Shown here: positions 28,851 through 35,712 of the stretch, one piece after another
Numbering within the stretch: position 1 is the stretch's first letter
How the letters are laid out: each line of letters starts with the position of its first letter
DNA from: Pantanalinema sp.
GTDB lineage: Bacteria; Cyanobacteriota; Sericytochromatia; S15B-MN24; UBA4093
Length of the DNA: 64,000 nt
Reading direction: 5' to 3'
Assembly (NCBI GenBank): GCA_036704125.1
Contig: DATNQI010000070.1
Location: forward strand, 1 to 64,000
Notes under the pieces: model-generated
Told to the model about the DNA's origin: nothing
The model's database searches: none
Seen by the model: only the letters and a program-made list of their open reading frames with translations
Translations under genes and position numbers: made by a program

Positions 28851-30572
28851 ATGCGTCGAATCACCCTTTTCGCCTCGGCTGCGCTCCTGGCCTGCGGCAT
28901 TTCCGCTCAGGCGGCAGACCTCGGCACGCCGAATGAGTGGCCCTATCCCATGGAGGGCGAGCCCGCGCGCTCGGCCCATGCCATGGTCAGCACCGTGTCT
29001 CCCCTGGCCAGCAAGATCGGGGTCGACATCCTGAAGCGCGGCGGGAACGCCGTCGATGCCGCGGTTGCCATCGGCTTCGTCCTGGCGGTCACGTGGCCCG
29101 AAGCCGGCAACATCGGTGGCGGCGGCCTGATGATGATCCGTGACCCCGAAGGCGGCCTCGAGGGCCTCGACTACCGCGAAACGGCGCCCGCCGAGGCCCG
29201 GCACGACATGTTCATGGGCCCGCAGGCCGACGGAGAGGAGCGCAGCCTGCACGGTCACCTGGCGGTCGGCACGCCGGGAACGGTCCGCGGCTTTTGGATA
29301 GCCCACCGTCAAAAGGGCAAGCTGCCCTGGGCCGAGCTGCTCAAACCGGCGATCGCCTTGGCCCGAGAAGGCTTCGTGGTGGATGCCGCCCTGGCCCGTT
29401 CCTTCGAGGATCGCGCCGCCCTGCTCCGGAAAAACCCCGAAGCGGCGCGGATCTTCCTGGACCGGGGCAAACCCCGCCGGGCCGGATCCCGGCTCGTCCA
29501 GACCGAGCTCGCCCATACCCTACGCCTGATCGCCGAGCGAGGTCCCGACGGTTTTTACAAGGGGCCGGTGGCCGAGGCGATCGCCTCGGACATGGCGCGC
29601 AGCGGCGGCATCCTGAGCGAAGGCGACCTCGCCGCATACCGGACCCGGTGGCGGCCTCCCCTCAGTATCCGCTACCACGGGTACACCGTCGCCACCATGC
29701 CTCCGCCGAGCGCGGGCGGCTTCGTGCTCCTCGCCGCGCTCCAGATGGTCGAGCACGACGATTTCAAGCGGATCGGCTTTCACTCCGTCTCGATGATCCA
29801 CCTTCTCGCCGAGGTGGAGCGCCGCGTCTACGCCGATCGCAACACCTACATCGGCGACCCCGATTTCTCCGCGGTCCCGATCGGCGAGCTGCTGGACAGC
29901 GCCTACCTGGCCCGGCGCCGCGCAAGCATCGATCCCCGGCGCGCGACTCCGGAGAATTCCCTGCGACCGGGCCAGCTGGCTGAGCCGCCCCAGACGACCA
30001 GCTACGTGGTCGTCGATCGACACGGCGGCGCCGTGAGCAACACCACCTCCCTCAACGACGCTTTCGGCTCGGGGGTCGTCGCTCCGGGCACGGGGGTCCT
30101 GCTCAACGGCGTGATGAACAACTTCGCCATAAGACCGGGTACCCCCAATTTCTATGGCCTGGCCCAGGGCGAACCGAACGCGATCGCTCCCGGCAAGCGA
30201 ATGATCACGTCCAAGGCCCCGACCGTGGTCCTCGACCCGAAGGGGCGCCTGTTCATGGTCCTCGGAACGCCAGGTGGGGCAAGCATCCCCGCCACCCTCC
30301 TCCAGGTGCTGATCAACGTGATCGACTACGGCATGAACCTCAAGGAGGCCATCAACGCGCCCCGCTTCCGCCACCAGGCCCTTCCCGAGCGCATCGAGGT
30401 CGAGGCCGGCGGCTTTGTTCCCGGCACCCTCAAGGCCCTCGAGGAAATGGGGCACCACGTTCACATCGCGTCGAGTTCGATCGGCGACGTCAAGGCCGTC
30501 GCCGTGACGCCGGGCGCAGAGCGCGAGGGCTACGCCGATCCGCGCCGCGGCGGGACGTCCATGGGGTACTAG
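28851..30572 (+). CDS. ggt: gamma-glutamyltranspeptidase
   Basis: The 573-residue protein has a Sec signal peptide (to AQAAD) and is exported. It breaks gamma-glutamyl bonds of glutathione or transfers the group. The self-cleavage and catalytic Thr is in QTTSYVVVD (Thr382), followed by NTTSLNDAFGSG. The oxyanion pair is in GTPGGASIP. The large-subunit Arg motif is RETAPAEA. The start at 28851 is preferred to 28836 because GAGGAGCG lies at the right distance. It may be co-transcribed with the histidine kinase. A weak hairpin GAACC...GGTTC follows at 30584-30601. Confidence 0.93.
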   Translation: MRRITLFASAALLACGISAQAADLGTPNEWPYPMEGEPARSAHAMVSTVSPLASKIGVDILKRGGNAVDAAVAIGFVLAVTWPEAGNIGGGGLMMIRDPEGGLEGLDYRETAPAEARHDMFMGPQADGEERSLHGHLAVGTPGTVRGFWIAHRQKGKLPWAELLKPAIALAREGFVVDAALARSFEDRAALLRKNPEAARIFLDRGKPRRAGSRLVQTELAHTLRLIAERGPDGFYKGPVAEAIASDMARSGGILSEGDLAAYRTRWRPPLSIRYHGYTVATMPPPSAGGFVLLAALQMVEHDDFKRIGFHSVSMIHLLAEVERRVYADRNTYIGDPDFSAVPIGELLDSAYLARRRASIDPRRATPENSLRPGQLAEPPQTTSYVVVDRHGGAVSNTTSLNDAFGSGVVAPGTGVLLNGVMNNFAIRPGTPNFYGLAQGEPNAIAPGKRMITSKAPTVVLDPKGRLFMVLGTPGGASIPATLLQVLINVIDYGMNLKEAINAPRFRHQALPERIEVEAGGFVPGTLKALEEMGHHVHIASSSIGDVKAVAVTPGAEREGYADPRRGGTSMGY

Positions 30573-30804
30573 CAAGGAGGCAGGAACCGGTGTCCTGGTT
30601 CACAAGTAGATCAAGCCCCGAATGACCGCTTCAACACGACGTAGCCCCACCCAATTATTTTGTGGGTTCAAGCATCGTCCCGAGGATCACGAGAGCGTAC
30701 CGTAGCAAATCGCAAGCGATCGCCATGGCCAACTCCTGATTCCAAGGATGGCGATCATTTTGTTCTTTATCGTGTTTTTTGGCGAGATGGAGGCCATTAA
30801 TTGC
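30573..30804. other. intergenic boundary of the low-GC block
   Basis: No gene seen. Holds a weak hairpin (30584-30601), one HIP1 octamer (30716-30723) and the first AT-rich stretch. Composition changes here from about 70% GC to about half. Confidence 0.5.
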
Positions 30805-31572
30805 ATGAAGATTCTCAAGCTAGGCAGCGTTTTGCTGGTTCTTCTGACGATGGCAGTTGCTGTCGGCCCTCAAATAAAAAACGGTGAGGCGGCCTCTCTA
30901 CTGAGCACGCAACTTAATTCCCCTCAGGGAAACCTCGTCGAGCCTCTTTCTAACGGCCTTCTTCTCTCCATGACAAAGAGTGACATCATAGAACGTTTCG
31001 GTCCACCAACGTACGTCACGTGGGACGATGGAACCTTCGGCTATCGAGACTTCACCGTCATTTGCGGAGGCAAGAACAAGTCAATCTGGCACCTCACCCT
31101 GAAAGAAAACATCAAGCTCAATTCCGGCATTGGAATCGGCAGCGGAATGAACGAGGTCATGAAAACATTCAACCACAAATACGACTTCATCTACGATCAA
31201 TACCATCTCATCTTTTCTTACGCAGGAGATCAGGTCAGCGGAATCAAGATCGACCCTGTAAATGACGGTTTTGCACCCTATTCTGGAAAGGGATCTGCTG
31301 CGGCGCAAGCCACTGTCGGTCGTTCCGCCTTCGTTGGGCTGTGGTATGGCACCGCATCGACCGTAGGAACCATCGACATTCGTCCGGATGGCACCTACGT
31401 ATACAACGGCAATGGTAACGGTACTTATGCGGTGAACGGAAACATCATTACCTTTACGGGACCTCTCTCTGCTTGGGATGGGGGGCGCGCGACCCTCGAC
31501 GGGGGGAACCTGGTCTTTTACTGGCGGAACAAAAACGGCTCGAAAAATTGGTTTACATTCGCCAAGGAATAA
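30805..31572 (+). CDS. secreted hypothetical protein with SmpA-like and beta-rich parts
   Basis: The 255-residue protein starts with a signal peptide (MKILKLGSVLLVLLTMAVAV). Residues about 45-140 contain SMTKSDIIERFGPPTYVTWD, which looks like the BamE/SmpA-type fold start (GMT...V...GxP). The C-terminal 75 residues form an independent beta-rich unit with WYGTASTVGTIDIRPDGTY. No enzyme motif. An ATG at 30748 is in frame, but the signal peptide favours 30805, with TGGAGG eleven bases upstream. Codon use and GC are below those of the core genes. A hairpin CCCCCG...CGGGGG follows at 31573-31594. Confidence 0.65.
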   Translation: MKILKLGSVLLVLLTMAVAVGPQIKNGEAASLLSTQLNSPQGNLVEPLSNGLLLSMTKSDIIERFGPPTYVTWDDGTFGYRDFTVICGGKNKSIWHLTLKENIKLNSGIGIGSGMNEVMKTFNHKYDFIYDQYHLIFSYAGDQVSGIKIDPVNDGFAPYSGKGSAAAQATVGRSAFVGLWYGTASTVGTIDIRPDGTYVYNGNGNGTYAVNGNIITFTGPLSAWDGGRATLDGGNLVFYWRNKNGSKNWFTFAKE

Positions 31573-31594
31573 CCCCCGATGCTTGTTCCGGGGG
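31573..31594 (+). terminator. weak terminator hairpin
   Basis: CCCCCG, ten-base loop, CGGGGG directly after the stop codon, without T tract. Confidence 0.35.
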
Positions 31595-31873
31595 CGCGGA
31601 CCCCGTGCAACGCGAGGTCGAGCCGCCGAGGATCCCGGCCTTCCTCGTCTTGCCTCGTCGCTCGGCCGTTGTGCGCACCATCGCTCGGCTCGAACGCCAC
31701 CCATTTCCGGCCGACAGCCACGGCGAGCTCCCGGCGGAAGGCGTCGAGCCGCAGCATCCCTCACTATTCTGCGCTCTTGAGTGCTGCGAAGTCTTGATTG
31801 AGGCTTGAATCCCGGATTCAAGAATGATGGGATGGTTTCACTACAGAACGGCTTCAGTTGATGTGAGGGGGCC
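31573..31873. other. intergenic stretch without a credible gene
   Basis: Bases 31595-31770 are GC-rich with short open frames on both strands that lack ribosome sites and recognisable products; they may be a gene remnant. A perfect inverted repeat CTTGAATCC-C-GGATTCAAG lies at 31804-31822, 52 bases before the next gene, and could be an operator or short hairpin. Confidence 0.5.
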
Positions 31874-32557
31874 ATGGCAATCGATCAAAAGGTCGCCCTT
31901 TATACCTTGCTCTTTGTGGTGCCAGGTTTCATCTTGTCCTGGATCATCTCGCTCTTTGTCTCGAACCGCACCAAGGATGTCTCCCAGCTGCTGATCCAGT
32001 ATCTGAGCTTGACGTCATTGAACTACGCCGTGTGGTCGTGGTTATTGGTTTTACTGGCAAACAAACCCACCATCTGGCTTTGGGGCCATGGATCCGTCAT
32101 TGCGCTCAGCGTGTTTTTCATCATGTTCGTTAGTCCGGTCGCTATTGGGCTATTGATCGGGAACCTGATCGTTCGCAATCGAAAAGGTCCTCTCTGGCGC
32201 GCGATCGGTTTCAATCCCAACATCCTGTTCCCGGTGGGTTGGGACTACAAGTTCAATCAACTGGCCCAGGACAACCAAGCCGCTTTCCTGAAGGTCATCT
32301 TGACCGATGGTGGGGTGGTGGGCGGTGCTTTCTCGGGCCGCTCCTTCGCCTCTACCGACCCGGCGGAACGGGATCTCGTGCTCGAAGAAGCTTATCGCTA
32401 TGACGGTGAGCGCTGGCATCCGGTTCCAAACAGTGCCGGCATGTGGGTTCGGGGAGACCGAATCGCGGCTGTCGAGTTCGTCTTCGACAGCAAGGAGGAG
32501 CCTCATGTCCAAGAAACCGCTCATCCAGATCGAAAACCGCCGGTACTCAATCAGTAG
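31874..32557 (+). CDS. DUF6338 family membrane protein
   Basis: The 227-residue protein has three or four membrane segments in the first 100 residues (VVPGFILSWIISLF, NYAVWSWLLVLL, LSVFFIMFVSPVAIGLLIG). A soluble domain with WDYKFNQL, TDGGVVGGAFSGRSFAS and DLVLEEAYRYDGERWHPV follows. This layout and these motifs match DUF6338 as I know it. The role is unknown; the family often sits in accessory regions. The start ATG at 31874 follows GTGAGGGGGCC. Its 3' end overlaps the small gene at 32505. A decayed second copy lies at 33440-33705. Confidence 0.75.
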   Translation: MAIDQKVALYTLLFVVPGFILSWIISLFVSNRTKDVSQLLIQYLSLTSLNYAVWSWLLVLLANKPTIWLWGHGSVIALSVFFIMFVSPVAIGLLIGNLIVRNRKGPLWRAIGFNPNILFPVGWDYKFNQLAQDNQAAFLKVILTDGGVVGGAFSGRSFASTDPAERDLVLEEAYRYDGERWHPVPNSAGMWVRGDRIAAVEFVFDSKEEPHVQETAHPDRKPPVLNQ

Positions 32558-32741
32558 GTCTCCCGGTTTCAAGGGCGGGAGCCTCATGACGCATGCCACC
32601 CTTCCTGAACGAGATCTCTCTGCAACAAACGAGTGTCTTCAGCGTCAACTGGGTATCCAGCCTGATAACAATCACCCCTTCAATGGCACGCCAGAAGGCG
32701 GACCCAGCATCTATTACGACGGTCCCAAGCGAAAGCCGTAG
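32505..32741 (+). CDS. small protein overlapping the DUF6338 gene
   Basis: A 78-residue protein beginning MSKKPLIQIENRRYSISRSP and ending GPSIYYDGPKRKP. It overlaps the end of the DUF6338 gene by 53 bases in another frame and has a perfect ribosome site (AAGGAGGAG, 32491-32499). Basic, no membrane segment. The tight overlap suggests that it works with the DUF6338 protein. I do not recognise the family. Confidence 0.65.
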   Translation: MSKKPLIQIENRRYSISRSPGFKGGSLMTHATLPERDLSATNECLQRQLGIQPDNNHPFNGTPEGGPSIYYDGPKRKP

Positions 32742-32883
32742 CAAGGGATGGGCCAGGCGGCGATTCCTCACACCGCTCCTGCTTGGCGTATGACACGAGA
32801 AAAATCACTCAAATAAACCTCAGTCAGCGTGCACCAATTTGGTTGGATCGCCATGCGCTTGATTGGCGAGAAAGGGGGAAATG

Positions 32884-33438
32884 ATGCGAACGAGGGATGC
32901 ACTTCTCGGCCTATCGCTCAGCTTGCTTGTCGTCGGCTGTCCCCAGCAGTCGACGGTCCCCTCGCAGGCCGATAACGCCGGAGGCGCCACGGCACACAGC
33001 AACTCTTCTCGAAGCGCCAGCTTCATCAACACGACCAGGCAATCGCTGCTTCGCCTCTGGAACGAGCCGGACCCAGAGGGCGAAGTGAAATCCATCCGGT
33101 TTGGCATCGACGATGCGCGCGACCAGAACGCCACGCCCTTCGACCAAGCGCTTGCGGGCACCTGGGAGCTCTATCAGCTCGGCGACAGCGAGACGCGCCC
33201 TTTCGGCATTCTGCGCATCACCTCGGACGGCGCGTTCAACTACAGCTCCTACGAGGGCAAGATGATGTACGCCGTCCCTCGCAGGTACCGTGACGACCGA
33301 TCCACCTACTGGCACTTCGGCGGCGGACTCCTGGACAACTTCTACGCGCGTTCGGGCTACAACACCAACGGCGTTCCCATCCTCCGTATCTACTCCGCGA
33401 ACAAGAATAGAATGTCCGGTTTCGGAGTTCCCCGTTAG
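32884..33438 (+). CDS. hypothetical lipoprotein
   Basis: The 184-residue protein has a lipobox VVGC (Cys about residue 17) and a Ser/Ala-rich linker. Its beta-rich C-terminal domain contains LAGTWELYQLGDSE and ILRITSDGAFNYSSYEGK. This resembles the beta unit of the protein at 30805-31572. No enzyme motif. ATGs at 32863, 32881 and 32884 are in frame; AAGGGGGA (32872-32879) favours 32884. GC is mixed, rising within the gene. Confidence 0.6.
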   Translation: MRTRDALLGLSLSLLVVGCPQQSTVPSQADNAGGATAHSNSSRSASFINTTRQSLLRLWNEPDPEGEVKSIRFGIDDARDQNATPFDQALAGTWELYQLGDSETRPFGILRITSDGAFNYSSYEGKMMYAVPRRYRDDRSTYWHFGGGLLDNFYARSGYNTNGVPILRIYSANKNRMSGFGVPR

Positions 33439-33439
33439 C

Positions 33440-33705
33440 GCTTCAAGGTGGTGTGGTATTCGCGCTTCATCTTCTTGGCCCCTCAAAGGGCGGCGAGACC
33501 TACGACCGTCGAAAAAATGTCTCCCTGCTTCTGAAGCAATACCTGTGCATGGGCTCCCATAACAACGCCTCATGGTCGTGGTTGCTGGTCTTGCTTGCCT
33601 ATTAACCCGCCGTCTACTCCTAGGGTCGGATCTGCTGTGGCAATCTGCGCATTTTTCACGTTAGGCTGCCCAGATCTGGCCTATTGATTGGATGACCGTG
33701 TCCCG
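33440..33705 (+). pseudogene. decayed copy of the DUF6338 gene
   Basis: This stretch aligns with the start of the intact DUF6338 gene (about 31910-32180). In one frame, AAA AAT GTC at 33514 onwards reads KNVSLLLKQYLCMGSHNNAS and continues WSWLLVLLAY then stop. The intact gene reads KDVSQLLIQYLSLTSLNYAVWSWLLVLLANKP. Further along, CCTATTGATTGG matches the intact GGCTATTGATCGG. Stops, small deletions and a lost 3' part show it is dead. It lies after a lipoprotein gene, just as the intact copy lies after a secreted protein gene. Confidence 0.75.
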
Positions 33706-34118
33706 CCTATCACCGTAGTGCTGCGTGGTTCAAGGCTCACGTCATGCTGAAGCGCTTCGACCGGATGCGGGCTCACCGGGTCCGTATCGGGATGCGCGAG
33801 TATTGGGTCATGTTTGCCTGAGCGTTGGATCCGCTCGGGAGACCAGGGCACGAACCAGGCAATCCCGCCGATTCTTGGTCTACCCCTACCCGATATGCCG
33901 AACTGTCAACGACCCGCCAAACCTCGAATCAATTCTTGAAATCAGGCCCATGAACGCTCTCAGGGCCCAATCGGAAAGGTCGCTAACGGATCGACCGTCA
34001 CCTTTCCAAGTCGATTCTGACTAATCGATCTATTGGGCAGTCACTTTACAAAAATCCGTCGCCTGATGGCATATTTTGATTGAGTGAATCCCTATTGATG
34101 GAGATGAGGGGGTAGTTC
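33706..34118. other. intergenic, no credible gene
   Basis: The frame from about 33720 to 33821 (ends REYWVMFA) has no start with ribosome site and is likely debris. The region from 33870 on is AT-richer and contains TTTACA (34044-34049) and other A/T runs that may hold the promoter of the next gene; no clear -10 pairs with it. Confidence 0.5.
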
Positions 34119-34529
34119 ATGCTGAGCAGCATTGTCCTGGCTGCCGGACTTCTCGCGAAAACCATTGATATCCCACTTCCCACCAAAAACGACGTCTTTC
34201 AAGAACTGGTTGGAGACGGCAAAAAAGTTTGGCATCACGTGGGGAGTAGAGTCTTTTGGGGACCAGGTGGTAATTGCAACAAATCAATACAATTTCGCCG
34301 TGATGGCACGTGTGAAATGCAAGCCTGCCTGGATGGCAAGCCGATAAAAACCCAGGGAAAGTGGATAATCGGAGCGAAGGGAGCTCTTGACTGGACCGTG
34401 CTGATAGATGGCAACCCCTACCTTGTTCAAGCTCGAAAGGACAGCAGAAGCGAATATTTGATCATCTCTAAACCAGCTCCAGCCGGGGGAAAGAATGTTG
34501 ACGAATTCTATAAGCACGAATCCCAATAG
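34119..34529 (+). CDS. small secreted hypothetical protein
   Basis: The 136-residue protein has a short signal peptide (MLSSIVLAAGLLA). The mature part is beta-rich with two Cys and the motif KSIQFRRDGTCEMQ, similar in style to the DGT hairpins of the two other secreted proteins of this block. It ends DEFYKHESQ. A start site AGGGGG lies eight bases upstream of the ATG. Low GC. Function unknown. Confidence 0.6.
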   Translation: MLSSIVLAAGLLAKTIDIPLPTKNDVFQELVGDGKKVWHHVGSRVFWGPGGNCNKSIQFRRDGTCEMQACLDGKPIKTQGKWIIGAKGALDWTVLIDGNPYLVQARKDSRSEYLIISKPAPAGGKNVDEFYKHESQ

Positions 34530-34543
34530 CTTTCACAAGAAAA

Positions 34544-35044
34544 ATGTGTATCGCCATGAGGAATGACCAACCAGATCCCCCGAAAATCGCTGATCCAGAC
34601 ATCATCAAGACCATCACCAGCCTCCTACCATCGTGTATCACGGTGCTTGGCATCCTCGTAGGGGTCTGGCAGTTCAACACTGCAAATCGCATCGCCGACG
34701 CTACCGAATTCAAGCGAAGATTTTGGCAAGAAAAGCTCGAAGTCTATCGTCATGCTGACACCATTGTCGGGGAAATAGCCGAAGCCTCATCGAATGGACT
34801 GAAGAAAAGCACGATTCGAAAGAAAGCCAAAGAGTTCGATACGCTCTACTTTGGTTTGATTCCATTCATCCAAACCAGAGAAGACCAGAAGGTACGAGAG
34901 GCAGGCGAGGCACTTCACCGGGAACTCAAACACTACCTCCTCTTTAGCGGAAGTAGTACCGAAAGGATAGAAACGCTCGCGATAAATTTTGTGAAAGCCA
35001 CCCATGAGTCATTGATGACAACCTGGAAGGAGGTAAAGGACTAA
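34544..35044 (+). CDS. single-span membrane protein, hypothetical
   Basis: The 166-residue protein has one membrane segment around residues 26-45 (LPSCITVLGILVGVWQF). Before it is a short Pro/Asp-rich N-terminus, after it a helical cytoplasmic domain with FKRRFWQEKLEVYRHADTI. This arrangement resembles small sensor-type proteins of accessory regions that I cannot name. It lies 14 bases after the previous gene. An alternative start at 34556 is possible. GC about 50% (30 of 60 bases in 34561-34620). Confidence 0.6.
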   Translation: MCIAMRNDQPDPPKIADPDIIKTITSLLPSCITVLGILVGVWQFNTANRIADATEFKRRFWQEKLEVYRHADTIVGEIAEASSNGLKKSTIRKKAKEFDTLYFGLIPFIQTREDQKVREAGEALHRELKHYLLFSGSSTERIETLAINFVKATHESLMTTWKEVKD

Positions 35045-35127
35045 TCTCAGTCTTGAAGCGACTAAACCATGACGGTGCTTTGCGCAGCCTTCTCGGCTCT
35101 ACCTCCCGTGGGCGTATCCGGCGCCCC

Positions 35128-35712
35128 TTAGAGCCGGAAACGCACCCCGATGATCGTGCCGCCGCCGAGGGTCAGCTCCGCCTCCGGGGTGAACCGGGCG
35201 GAGACCTCGAGGCTGGTGTGCGGCCCGAACTTCACCATTCCCTTGTCGTCGGCCATGAAGGTGACGGTGGGCGAGAAGGTGATGGGCAGGGCGCGGCCGA
35301 AGAAGTGCGGAAAGTCGTAGCGGTAGCTGAGCGCGAGGCCCGCCTCGCCCACCGGGATGACCAGAGGCTCGCTCGCGGTGCCGTCGAGCTTGGGGGGGCC
35401 GTAGGTCTGCACCGCCGTGTAGGCCCCGACCAGGCCGAAGGCGATCGCTCCGGTGTCGCGCACCGTGTAGACCAGGTGCGCCGAGGGAGTCAGCGCGGTA
35501 CCGACGCTGCCGTAGTAGACCGAGGCGCTGGTCACCGAGCCGCCGAGCGTGACCGGGCCGGCCGACACGTTGAGGCCGGCGCCGGTCATGCCGAGCCCCA
35601 GGTTGAGACCCTGCTCCAGGCCGGCGCGGGCCTGGACCGAGGCCTGGGCGGGCAGCGCGAGGACGCCTGTGGCGAGAAACGCGAGGGTGAGAATGAAGGG
35701 TGCTGCTTTCAA
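35128..35712 (-). CDS. small secreted beta-barrel-like protein
   Basis: The 194-residue protein has a signal peptide (cut after AQA) and Gly-rich alternating strands, ending TIIGVRFRL, so probably an eight- to ten-strand outer-membrane barrel. No conserved enzyme motif. The start is TTG at 35712, eight bases after GGGAG. The high GC shows the core genome is reached again. It is similar in style to the barrel at 3571-4443. Single gene. Confidence 0.7.
   Translation of the reverse strand: MKAAPFILTLAFLATGVLALPAQASVQARAGLEQGLNLGLGMTGAGLNVSAGPVTLGGSVTSASVYYGSVGTALTPSAHLVYTVRDTGAIAFGLVGAYTAVQTYGPPKLDGTASEPLVIPVGEAGLALSYRYDFPHFFGRALPITFSPTVTFMADDKGMVKFGPHTSLEVSARFTPEAELTLGGGTIIGVRFRL

What the first reader, a model, noticed from the sequence alone, without database searches (positions are those of the whole stretch)
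33440..33705. Dead second copy of the DUF6338 gene and duplicated cassette structure
A stretch after the lipoprotein gene aligns with the N-terminal coding part of the intact DUF6338 gene 1.6 kb upstream (NVSLLLKQYL..., WSWLLVLLAY then stop). Both copies follow a gene for a small exported beta-rich protein. So a cassette of exported protein plus DUF6338 was probably duplicated or acquired twice and one copy decayed. This suggests that DUF6338 works with such exported proteins.
Basis: seen in the sequence. Interest (0 to 1): 0.55.

Follow-up and report, generated by a model that had tools for sequence, protein, structure and literature searches.

The report
Dead DUF6338 copy; conserved peptide partner
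The dead second copy of a membrane-protein gene is real but ordinary; comparing relatives shows that the intact gene is usually followed by an overlooked gene for a tiny proline-rich protein, and this pair turns up across very different bacteria, plasmids and prophages.

Summary
33504-33692 is a broken relative of the intact DUF6338 gene at 31874-32557 (45% identity over residues 31-96, E 1.5e-8; three stops inside). The adjacent copy is its nearest relative (45.8 bits against at most 24.6 for 38 others). The cassette reading fails: the two upstream exported proteins do not match each other (E 0.91) and have no relatives beside DUF6338 elsewhere.

The real partner is the overlapping 78-aa ORF (32505-32741). 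Of 65 non-redundant intact DUF6338 genes, 47 are directly followed by a small ORF with a GYQP-type motif and 9 more by a looser form; of 375 control genes, 2 and 33. DUF6338 is predicted to be three membrane helices plus a cytosolic Sm-like domain (Z 9.2). The pair is mobile, often but not always near defence genes. A 2023 proteomics paper called three Pro-rich proteins behind a DUF6338 gene unconserved, possibly de novo; that now looks wrong. Function is inferred: probably a membrane Sm-like protein controlled by its disordered partner.

The parts
31874..32557 (+). intact DUF6338 gene, 227 aa: three predicted membrane helices (residues about 5-26, 36-62, 73-104) and a C-terminal Sm-like domain (about 120-205)
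   Evidence: PF19865 E 8.1e-29; model mean pLDDT 84.5; Sm fold Z 9.2, rmsd 2.5 over 72 residues
32505..32741 (+). 78-aa overlapping partner ORF, degenerate member of the GYQP/Pro-rich partner family (GIQP ... TPEGGPS ... PKRKP)
   Evidence: overlaps the DUF6338 gene by 53 nt; one of only 2 of 496 window ORFs with the two-part motif (the motif was written after seeing this ORF)
32492..32500 (+). Shine-Dalgarno-like AAGGAGGAG, 4 nt before the partner ATG, inside the DUF6338 gene
   Evidence: sequence
33504..33701 (+). DUF6338 pseudogene fragment (residues about 31-99) with three in-frame stops
33451..33492 (+). possible N-terminal remnant of the pseudogene in another frame
   Evidence: 6 of 14 residues to L017 at the matching position, E 0.2; weak
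30805..31572 (+). exported orphan protein upstream of copy 1 (not part of the module)
   Evidence: no Pfam family over cut-off; own genome only among 20 searched
32884..33438 (+). orphan lipoprotein-like protein upstream of copy 2 (not part of the module)
   Evidence: no Pfam match; own genome only among 20 searched; no plasmid match
30600..35050 (.). low-G+C island that holds both copies
   Evidence: G+C mostly 0.48-0.61 inside against 0.62-0.76 on either side

Best explanation
The stretch is the decayed N-terminal half of a second DUF6338 gene, in a small acquired island. The working unit beside it is a two-gene module: DUF6338 and a tiny downstream gene whose start overlaps or nearly touches the DUF6338 stop. 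DUF6338 is most likely an inner-membrane protein with the N-terminus outside, three membrane helices and a cytosolic Sm-like domain that probably forms a ring. The partner is a disordered, proline-rich peptide made in close coupling with it; its repeated Gly-aromatic-Gln-Pro motifs and basic Pro-rich tail most likely bind the Sm-like domain and set its activity, as a gate, an inhibitor or a bait. The module moves between genomes and probably acts on its own as a stress or anti-phage membrane effector. Shown: the dead copy, the gene pairing, the patchy and mobile distribution. Predicted: fold and topology. Inferred: partner binding (about 0.6) and an effector or defence role (about 0.35).
For: Pairing: strict GYQP-type ORF behind 47 of 65 non-redundant intact DUF6338 genes, looser form behind 9, none behind 9; controls 2, 33 and 340 of 375 (Fisher 1e-45 for the strict form). 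A sample picked only by the Pfam profile (398 genomes, 20 over cut-off) gives strict 4, looser 6, none 2 of 12 intact (p 8e-6 for strict, 1e-8 for strict plus looser). In 34 of 47 the partner ORF can start before the DUF6338 stop (the earliest start codon in range was used). Partner: 15% Pro, 11% Gly, one to four motifs each. Fold: Sm/LSm matches fill the top rows for two models from different subgroups (Z 9.2 and 8.7); weak SM-ATX hits in 3 of 39 members. Topology: mean K+R 1.6 in loop 1-2, 0.7 in loop 2-3, 3.9 after helix 3. Mobility: over cut-off in 4 of 292 genomes of the phylum, own included, and in 1 of 59 relatives, the own genome; matches in 14 and 21 plasmid records and 16 viral contigs. 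Defence-type neighbours in 9 of 17 annotated plasmid or phage stretches and 7 of 19 hand-picked loci (L010 and L012 are in both counts).
Against: In the Pfam-picked sample only 1 of 9 upstream co-directional genes is a defence gene (PglW); the rest are GrpE twice, GMP synthase, EPSP synthase, a relaxase and others. PADLOC has no model for any of six window proteins. 9 of 65 intact genes failed even the looser motif, some with Pro-rich or later-starting ORFs, some with nothing. The window's own partner has GIQP, not GYQP. No binding was shown: in the read-through model the partner is mostly under pLDDT 50, only its last ten residues reach a mean of 72. Foldseek alone gives the Sm match at E 0.012.
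Confidence: 0.5

Rival explanations
1. One reading: a cassette of exported protein plus DUF6338 was duplicated or acquired twice, and DUF6338 works with exported proteins.
For: Both copies do follow a gene with an export signal (rule; sequence).
Against: The two exported proteins are not similar (E 0.91), nor is the flanking DNA. No relatives beside DUF6338 elsewhere. Only 3 of 50 other loci have a small exported-like ORF upstream.
Confidence: 0.05
2. DUF6338 and its peptide are a general membrane or RNA-binding accessory (an Sm-like ring tethered to the membrane, with the peptide as assembly factor) that has no role in defence; it lies in defence islands only because both travel on mobile DNA.
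For: 1 of 9 defence neighbours in the Pfam-picked sample; places beside grpE and guaA; Sm-like proteins often bind RNA (established knowledge).
Against: Patchy distribution: 5 of 292 genomes of the phylum at E <= 0.001, 26 of 398 of another. Repeated direct adjacency to IIG restriction enzymes, caspase, CD-NTase and E2/ThiF/JAB genes.
Confidence: 0.35
3. Toxin-antitoxin-like pair: DUF6338 is a pore-forming or depolarising membrane toxin held off by the peptide.
For: Two small overlapping genes, mobile, stand-alone; three helices before an Sm-like domain recall the MscS channel core (recalled, not tested).
Against: No test of toxicity. Gene order (partner after the membrane protein) and tandem copies of the peptide (L012, L076, L083) are unusual for an antitoxin. 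Truncated copies L047, L049 and L050 have no partner, but three frameshifted copies keep one (L006, L079, L108).
Confidence: 0.2
4. The second copy is not a decayed duplicate but a separately acquired DUF6338 of the same clade that broke after arrival.
For: Identity is only 45% in protein and 70% in DNA over the best stretch, low for a recent tandem duplication; surrounding genes differ.
Against: Closest relative among 39 compared is the adjacent copy; sampling of that clade is thin.
Confidence: 0.4

Closest known systems
Pfam PF19865 (DUF6338)
   Same: The intact gene is a full-length member, 101 bits against a cut-off of 26.5.
   Different: The family has no assigned function; neither the Sm-like fold nor a conserved peptide partner was found described in the paper library searched.
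Three proline-rich small proteins behind Pstu14405_12030 of Pseudomonas stutzeri (PMC10433244, passages read)
   Same: Short Pro-rich proteins predicted in one operon with a DUF6338 gene, detected by mass spectrometry.
   Different: The paper calls them not conserved beyond P. stutzeri and possible de novo genes; its homology rule was tBlastN with at least 60% coverage and 40% identity. Their sequences were not seen here.
Sm/LSm/Hfq proteins
   Same: The C-terminal domain matches the fold (best 1i8f_B, Z 9.2).
   Different: Tethered to three membrane helices; ring formation and RNA binding untested.
MscS mechanosensitive channel core (recalled)
   Same: Three membrane helices followed by an Sm-like beta domain, N-terminus outside.
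   Different: Recalled resemblance only; no sequence or structural test against MscS was made, and the protein ends after the barrel.
Nuclease-protease gene pairs recurrently acquired by unrelated immune systems (PMC12799240, abstract and introduction read)
   Same: A two-gene module found next to several unrelated defence systems.
   Different: Different proteins; DUF6338 pairs also occur away from defence genes.

Membership tests
DUF6338 (PF19865) | profile match over the curated cut-off along the full length | tested here: met
   101.1 bits, cut-off 26.5, profile 9-204 of 205
DUF6338 (PF19865), second copy | intact full-length reading frame | tested here: not met
   three stops, residues 31-99 only
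GYQP partner family (described here) | small ORF starting within -80 to +60 nt of the DUF6338 stop | tested here: met
   window ORF starts at -53, 78 aa
GYQP partner family (described here) | strict motif G[YFWH][QKRIVTSE]P | tested here: not met
   GIQP instead; only the looser form is met
Sm/LSm fold | N-terminal helix and five-stranded barrel | tested here: met
   predicted model, Z 9.2, rmsd 2.5 over 72 residues; a prediction, not a solved structure
Sm/LSm proteins | ring assembly and RNA binding | not testable with these tools
   none
MscS-like channel | sequence or structural match to MscS | not tested
   architecture resemblance is recalled only
Known anti-phage defence system (PADLOC) | a model matched by a module protein | tested here: not met
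   0 families at E <= 1 for six window proteins

The most novel reading that the evidence does not exclude
DUF6338 and its GYQP peptide are an undescribed stand-alone anti-phage or stress effector: a membrane-tethered Sm-like ring gated by a disordered peptide, which trades between mobile elements and has been repeatedly added to restriction, CBASS-like, TIR-caspase and E1-E2-JAB loci.
Probability: 0.3. Interest if true: 0.75.

Novelty: new variant of a known kind. Interest (0 to 1): 0.45.

Why it matters
The dead copy itself is ordinary. What matters is that a widespread family of unknown function turns out to be one half of a pair whose other half is so short and repetitive that annotation and similarity searches miss it. 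It turns a claim of species-specific de novo genes into a testable conserved partnership, gives the family a predicted fold, and supplies a simple two-gene unit to test for membrane or anti-phage activity.

Tried and rejected
Integron cassette array: an attC-like pattern search on both strands of 30001-35500 found nothing, and Rfam found nothing there. Duplicated flanks: no blastn match upstream; downstream only a 9-nt hit. Empty-site test: the related genome G001 has the left-flank gene but no match to the right-flank genes in the 19-kb stretch read, so no empty site could be read. A tRNA: none in the window. Remnant of a peptide partner behind the dead copy: none recognised by eye in the ORFs.

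Defence enrichment by PADLOC tally: 107 families among 134 neighbours of 25 loci, but 46 ordinary window genes also hit 49 families, so the tally is not evidence and was not used. An early impression that most neighbours are defence genes came from loci picked by hand; the Pfam-picked sample cut it to 1 of 9.

Claim that broken DUF6338 copies always lack the partner: wrong. L006, L079 and L108 are frameshifted but keep one; L047, L049 and L050 lack it. Partner docking: the second structure job gave only a weak hint at the C-terminal tail. E. coli: no DNA match in 20,395 records. GYQP as a text search returned unrelated peptide papers in the 15 listed of 183. MscS does not appear among the 50 rows shown; that neither supports nor excludes it.

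Rows dropped before the count: L001-L003 (own genome), L008 (duplicate of L006), L068-L075, L085-L095, L115-L122 (own, flank, repeat, or weak and partial loci); 92 loci entered, 73 remained after removal at 80% identity. The relaxed motif is loose (33 of 375 controls), and the two-part motif was written after seeing the window ORF.

Full report
What was asked.

The dead copy is real. The intact gene (31874-32557, 227 aa) is a full-length PF19865 member (E 8.1e-29). Its protein finds one second place in the window, 33504-33692, 45% identical over residues 31-96 at E 1.5e-8, with the next match at E 2.3; in DNA 70% over 99 nt, E 1.6e-6. The genome holds no other copy; the second has a TGA, a TAG and a TAA inside. 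A 14-residue piece in another frame may be the preceding part, which would mean a frameshift (E 0.2, weak). The C-terminal domain is gone. Of 39 DUF6338 proteins compared the adjacent copy is the best match, 45.8 bits against 24.6 for the next. Duplication and acquisition from one pool both fit.

The cassette reading is not supported. The exported proteins upstream of the two copies show no significant similarity (E 0.91) and the DNA around the copies does not match. Each is found only in the own genome among 20 searched. None of the four other island proteins has a match under E 0.1 in 132 other loci. A rough signal rule finds a small exported-like ORF upstream in 3 of 50 other loci with an upstream co-directional ORF. 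Both copies lie in a low-G+C island of about 4.5 kb. DUF6338 is present in 1 of 59 relatives, the own genome, and in 5 of 292 genomes of the phylum at E <= 0.001, 4 over the cut-off.

The conserved partner is downstream. In the window a 78-aa ORF (32505-32741) starts inside DUF6338 behind AAGGAGGAG. In relatives from plasmids, a phage, 35 named genome contigs and 16 viral contigs the gene is mostly followed by a 40-80 aa ORF with GYQP repeats and a Pro-rich, often basic tail. Counted on 73 non-redundant loci of 92: 65 have an intact DUF6338, of which 47 have a strict motif, 9 a looser one, 9 neither; 8 are broken or partial (0 strict, 3 looser, 5 neither). Control genes from the same loci: 2 strict, 33 looser, 340 neither of 375. 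The first loci were found by patterns from two subgroups, so I took a sample by Pfam profile alone: 398 genomes of another phylum, 26 with a match at E <= 0.001, 20 over cut-off. Of its 17 non-redundant loci 12 are intact: 4 strict, 6 looser, 2 neither (p 8e-6 and 1e-8). There the motif drifts to SYQP, GVQP or plain Pro-rich tails. The window's GIQP ... TPEGGPS ... PKRKP fits this drift; a two-part motif finds it and one other among 496 window ORFs, but I wrote that motif after seeing it.

Fold and topology. The model of the window protein (mean pLDDT 84.5, 39 sequences) has three long helices and a C-terminal barrel. VIA-align places residues 120-205 in the Sm/LSm fold (1i8f_B, Z 9.2, rmsd 2.5, 72 residues); a second model from another subgroup agrees (1i5l_B, Z 8.7). 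Foldseek by itself is weaker (best E 0.012), and 3 of 39 members show weak SM-ATX hits. Charges put the Sm-like domain in the cytosol. A read-through fold of DUF6338 and its partner left most of the peptide under pLDDT 50, with the last ten residues at 72: a hint, not a result.

Context. Nine of 17 annotated plasmid or phage stretches show defence-type genes nearby (CD-NTase with SLATT, E2/ThiF/JAB, TIR, caspase, type I restriction, CHAT). Of 19 loci whose upstream genes I picked by hand, 7 are defence type, 4 of them MmeI/Eco57I-like restriction enzymes; L010 and L012 are in both counts. In the Pfam-picked sample it is 1 of 9, a PglW; the others are housekeeping or mobility genes or unknown. 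So the pair is mobile and self-standing and often shares islands with defence systems, but a defence role is inferred.

Literature. DUF6338 occurs in one paper of the library, PF19865 in none. That paper (PMC10433244, passages read) detected three Pro-rich small proteins behind a DUF6338 gene in P. stutzeri and called them unconserved and possibly de novo. The pairing found here argues against that, though their sequences were not seen.

Verdict. Observation confirmed; exported-protein interpretation rejected; the conserved partnership was not found in print in the searches named. Mechanism proposed: a membrane-tethered Sm-like protein, probably a ring, controlled by a disordered peptide translated in coupling with it.

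Noticed in passing
L031, L015, L080 (and L035 by its like arrangement): Caspase-family gene beside DUF6338, in L015 and L080 with annotated TIR genes; L031 and L035 have a 133-aa ORF before a 318-aa ORF (caspase by Pfam in L031) that may be a TIR protein, not checked one by one. The arrangement recalls TIR-caspase defence (recalled).
   Followed up: partly
L012, L076, L078, L083 and L009, L043, L051: Two or three GYQP-type peptide genes in tandem behind one DUF6338 gene, as in the P. stutzeri paper.
   Followed up: partly
L123 and L127: DUF6338 and its partner lie directly behind grpE; in L123 the next gene is dnaK (Hsp70). The far side of L127 was not checked.
   Followed up: no
window 34544-35044: 166-aa ORF with one likely membrane helix, no family over cut-off, in the same low-G+C island.
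   Followed up: no
L078 5508-6458: DUF4062 gene next to DUF6338 and its peptides on an Acinetobacter plasmid; a 2026 preprint (PMC13174449, search listing only) describes DUF4062 as an anti-phage TIR-like NADase.
   Followed up: no
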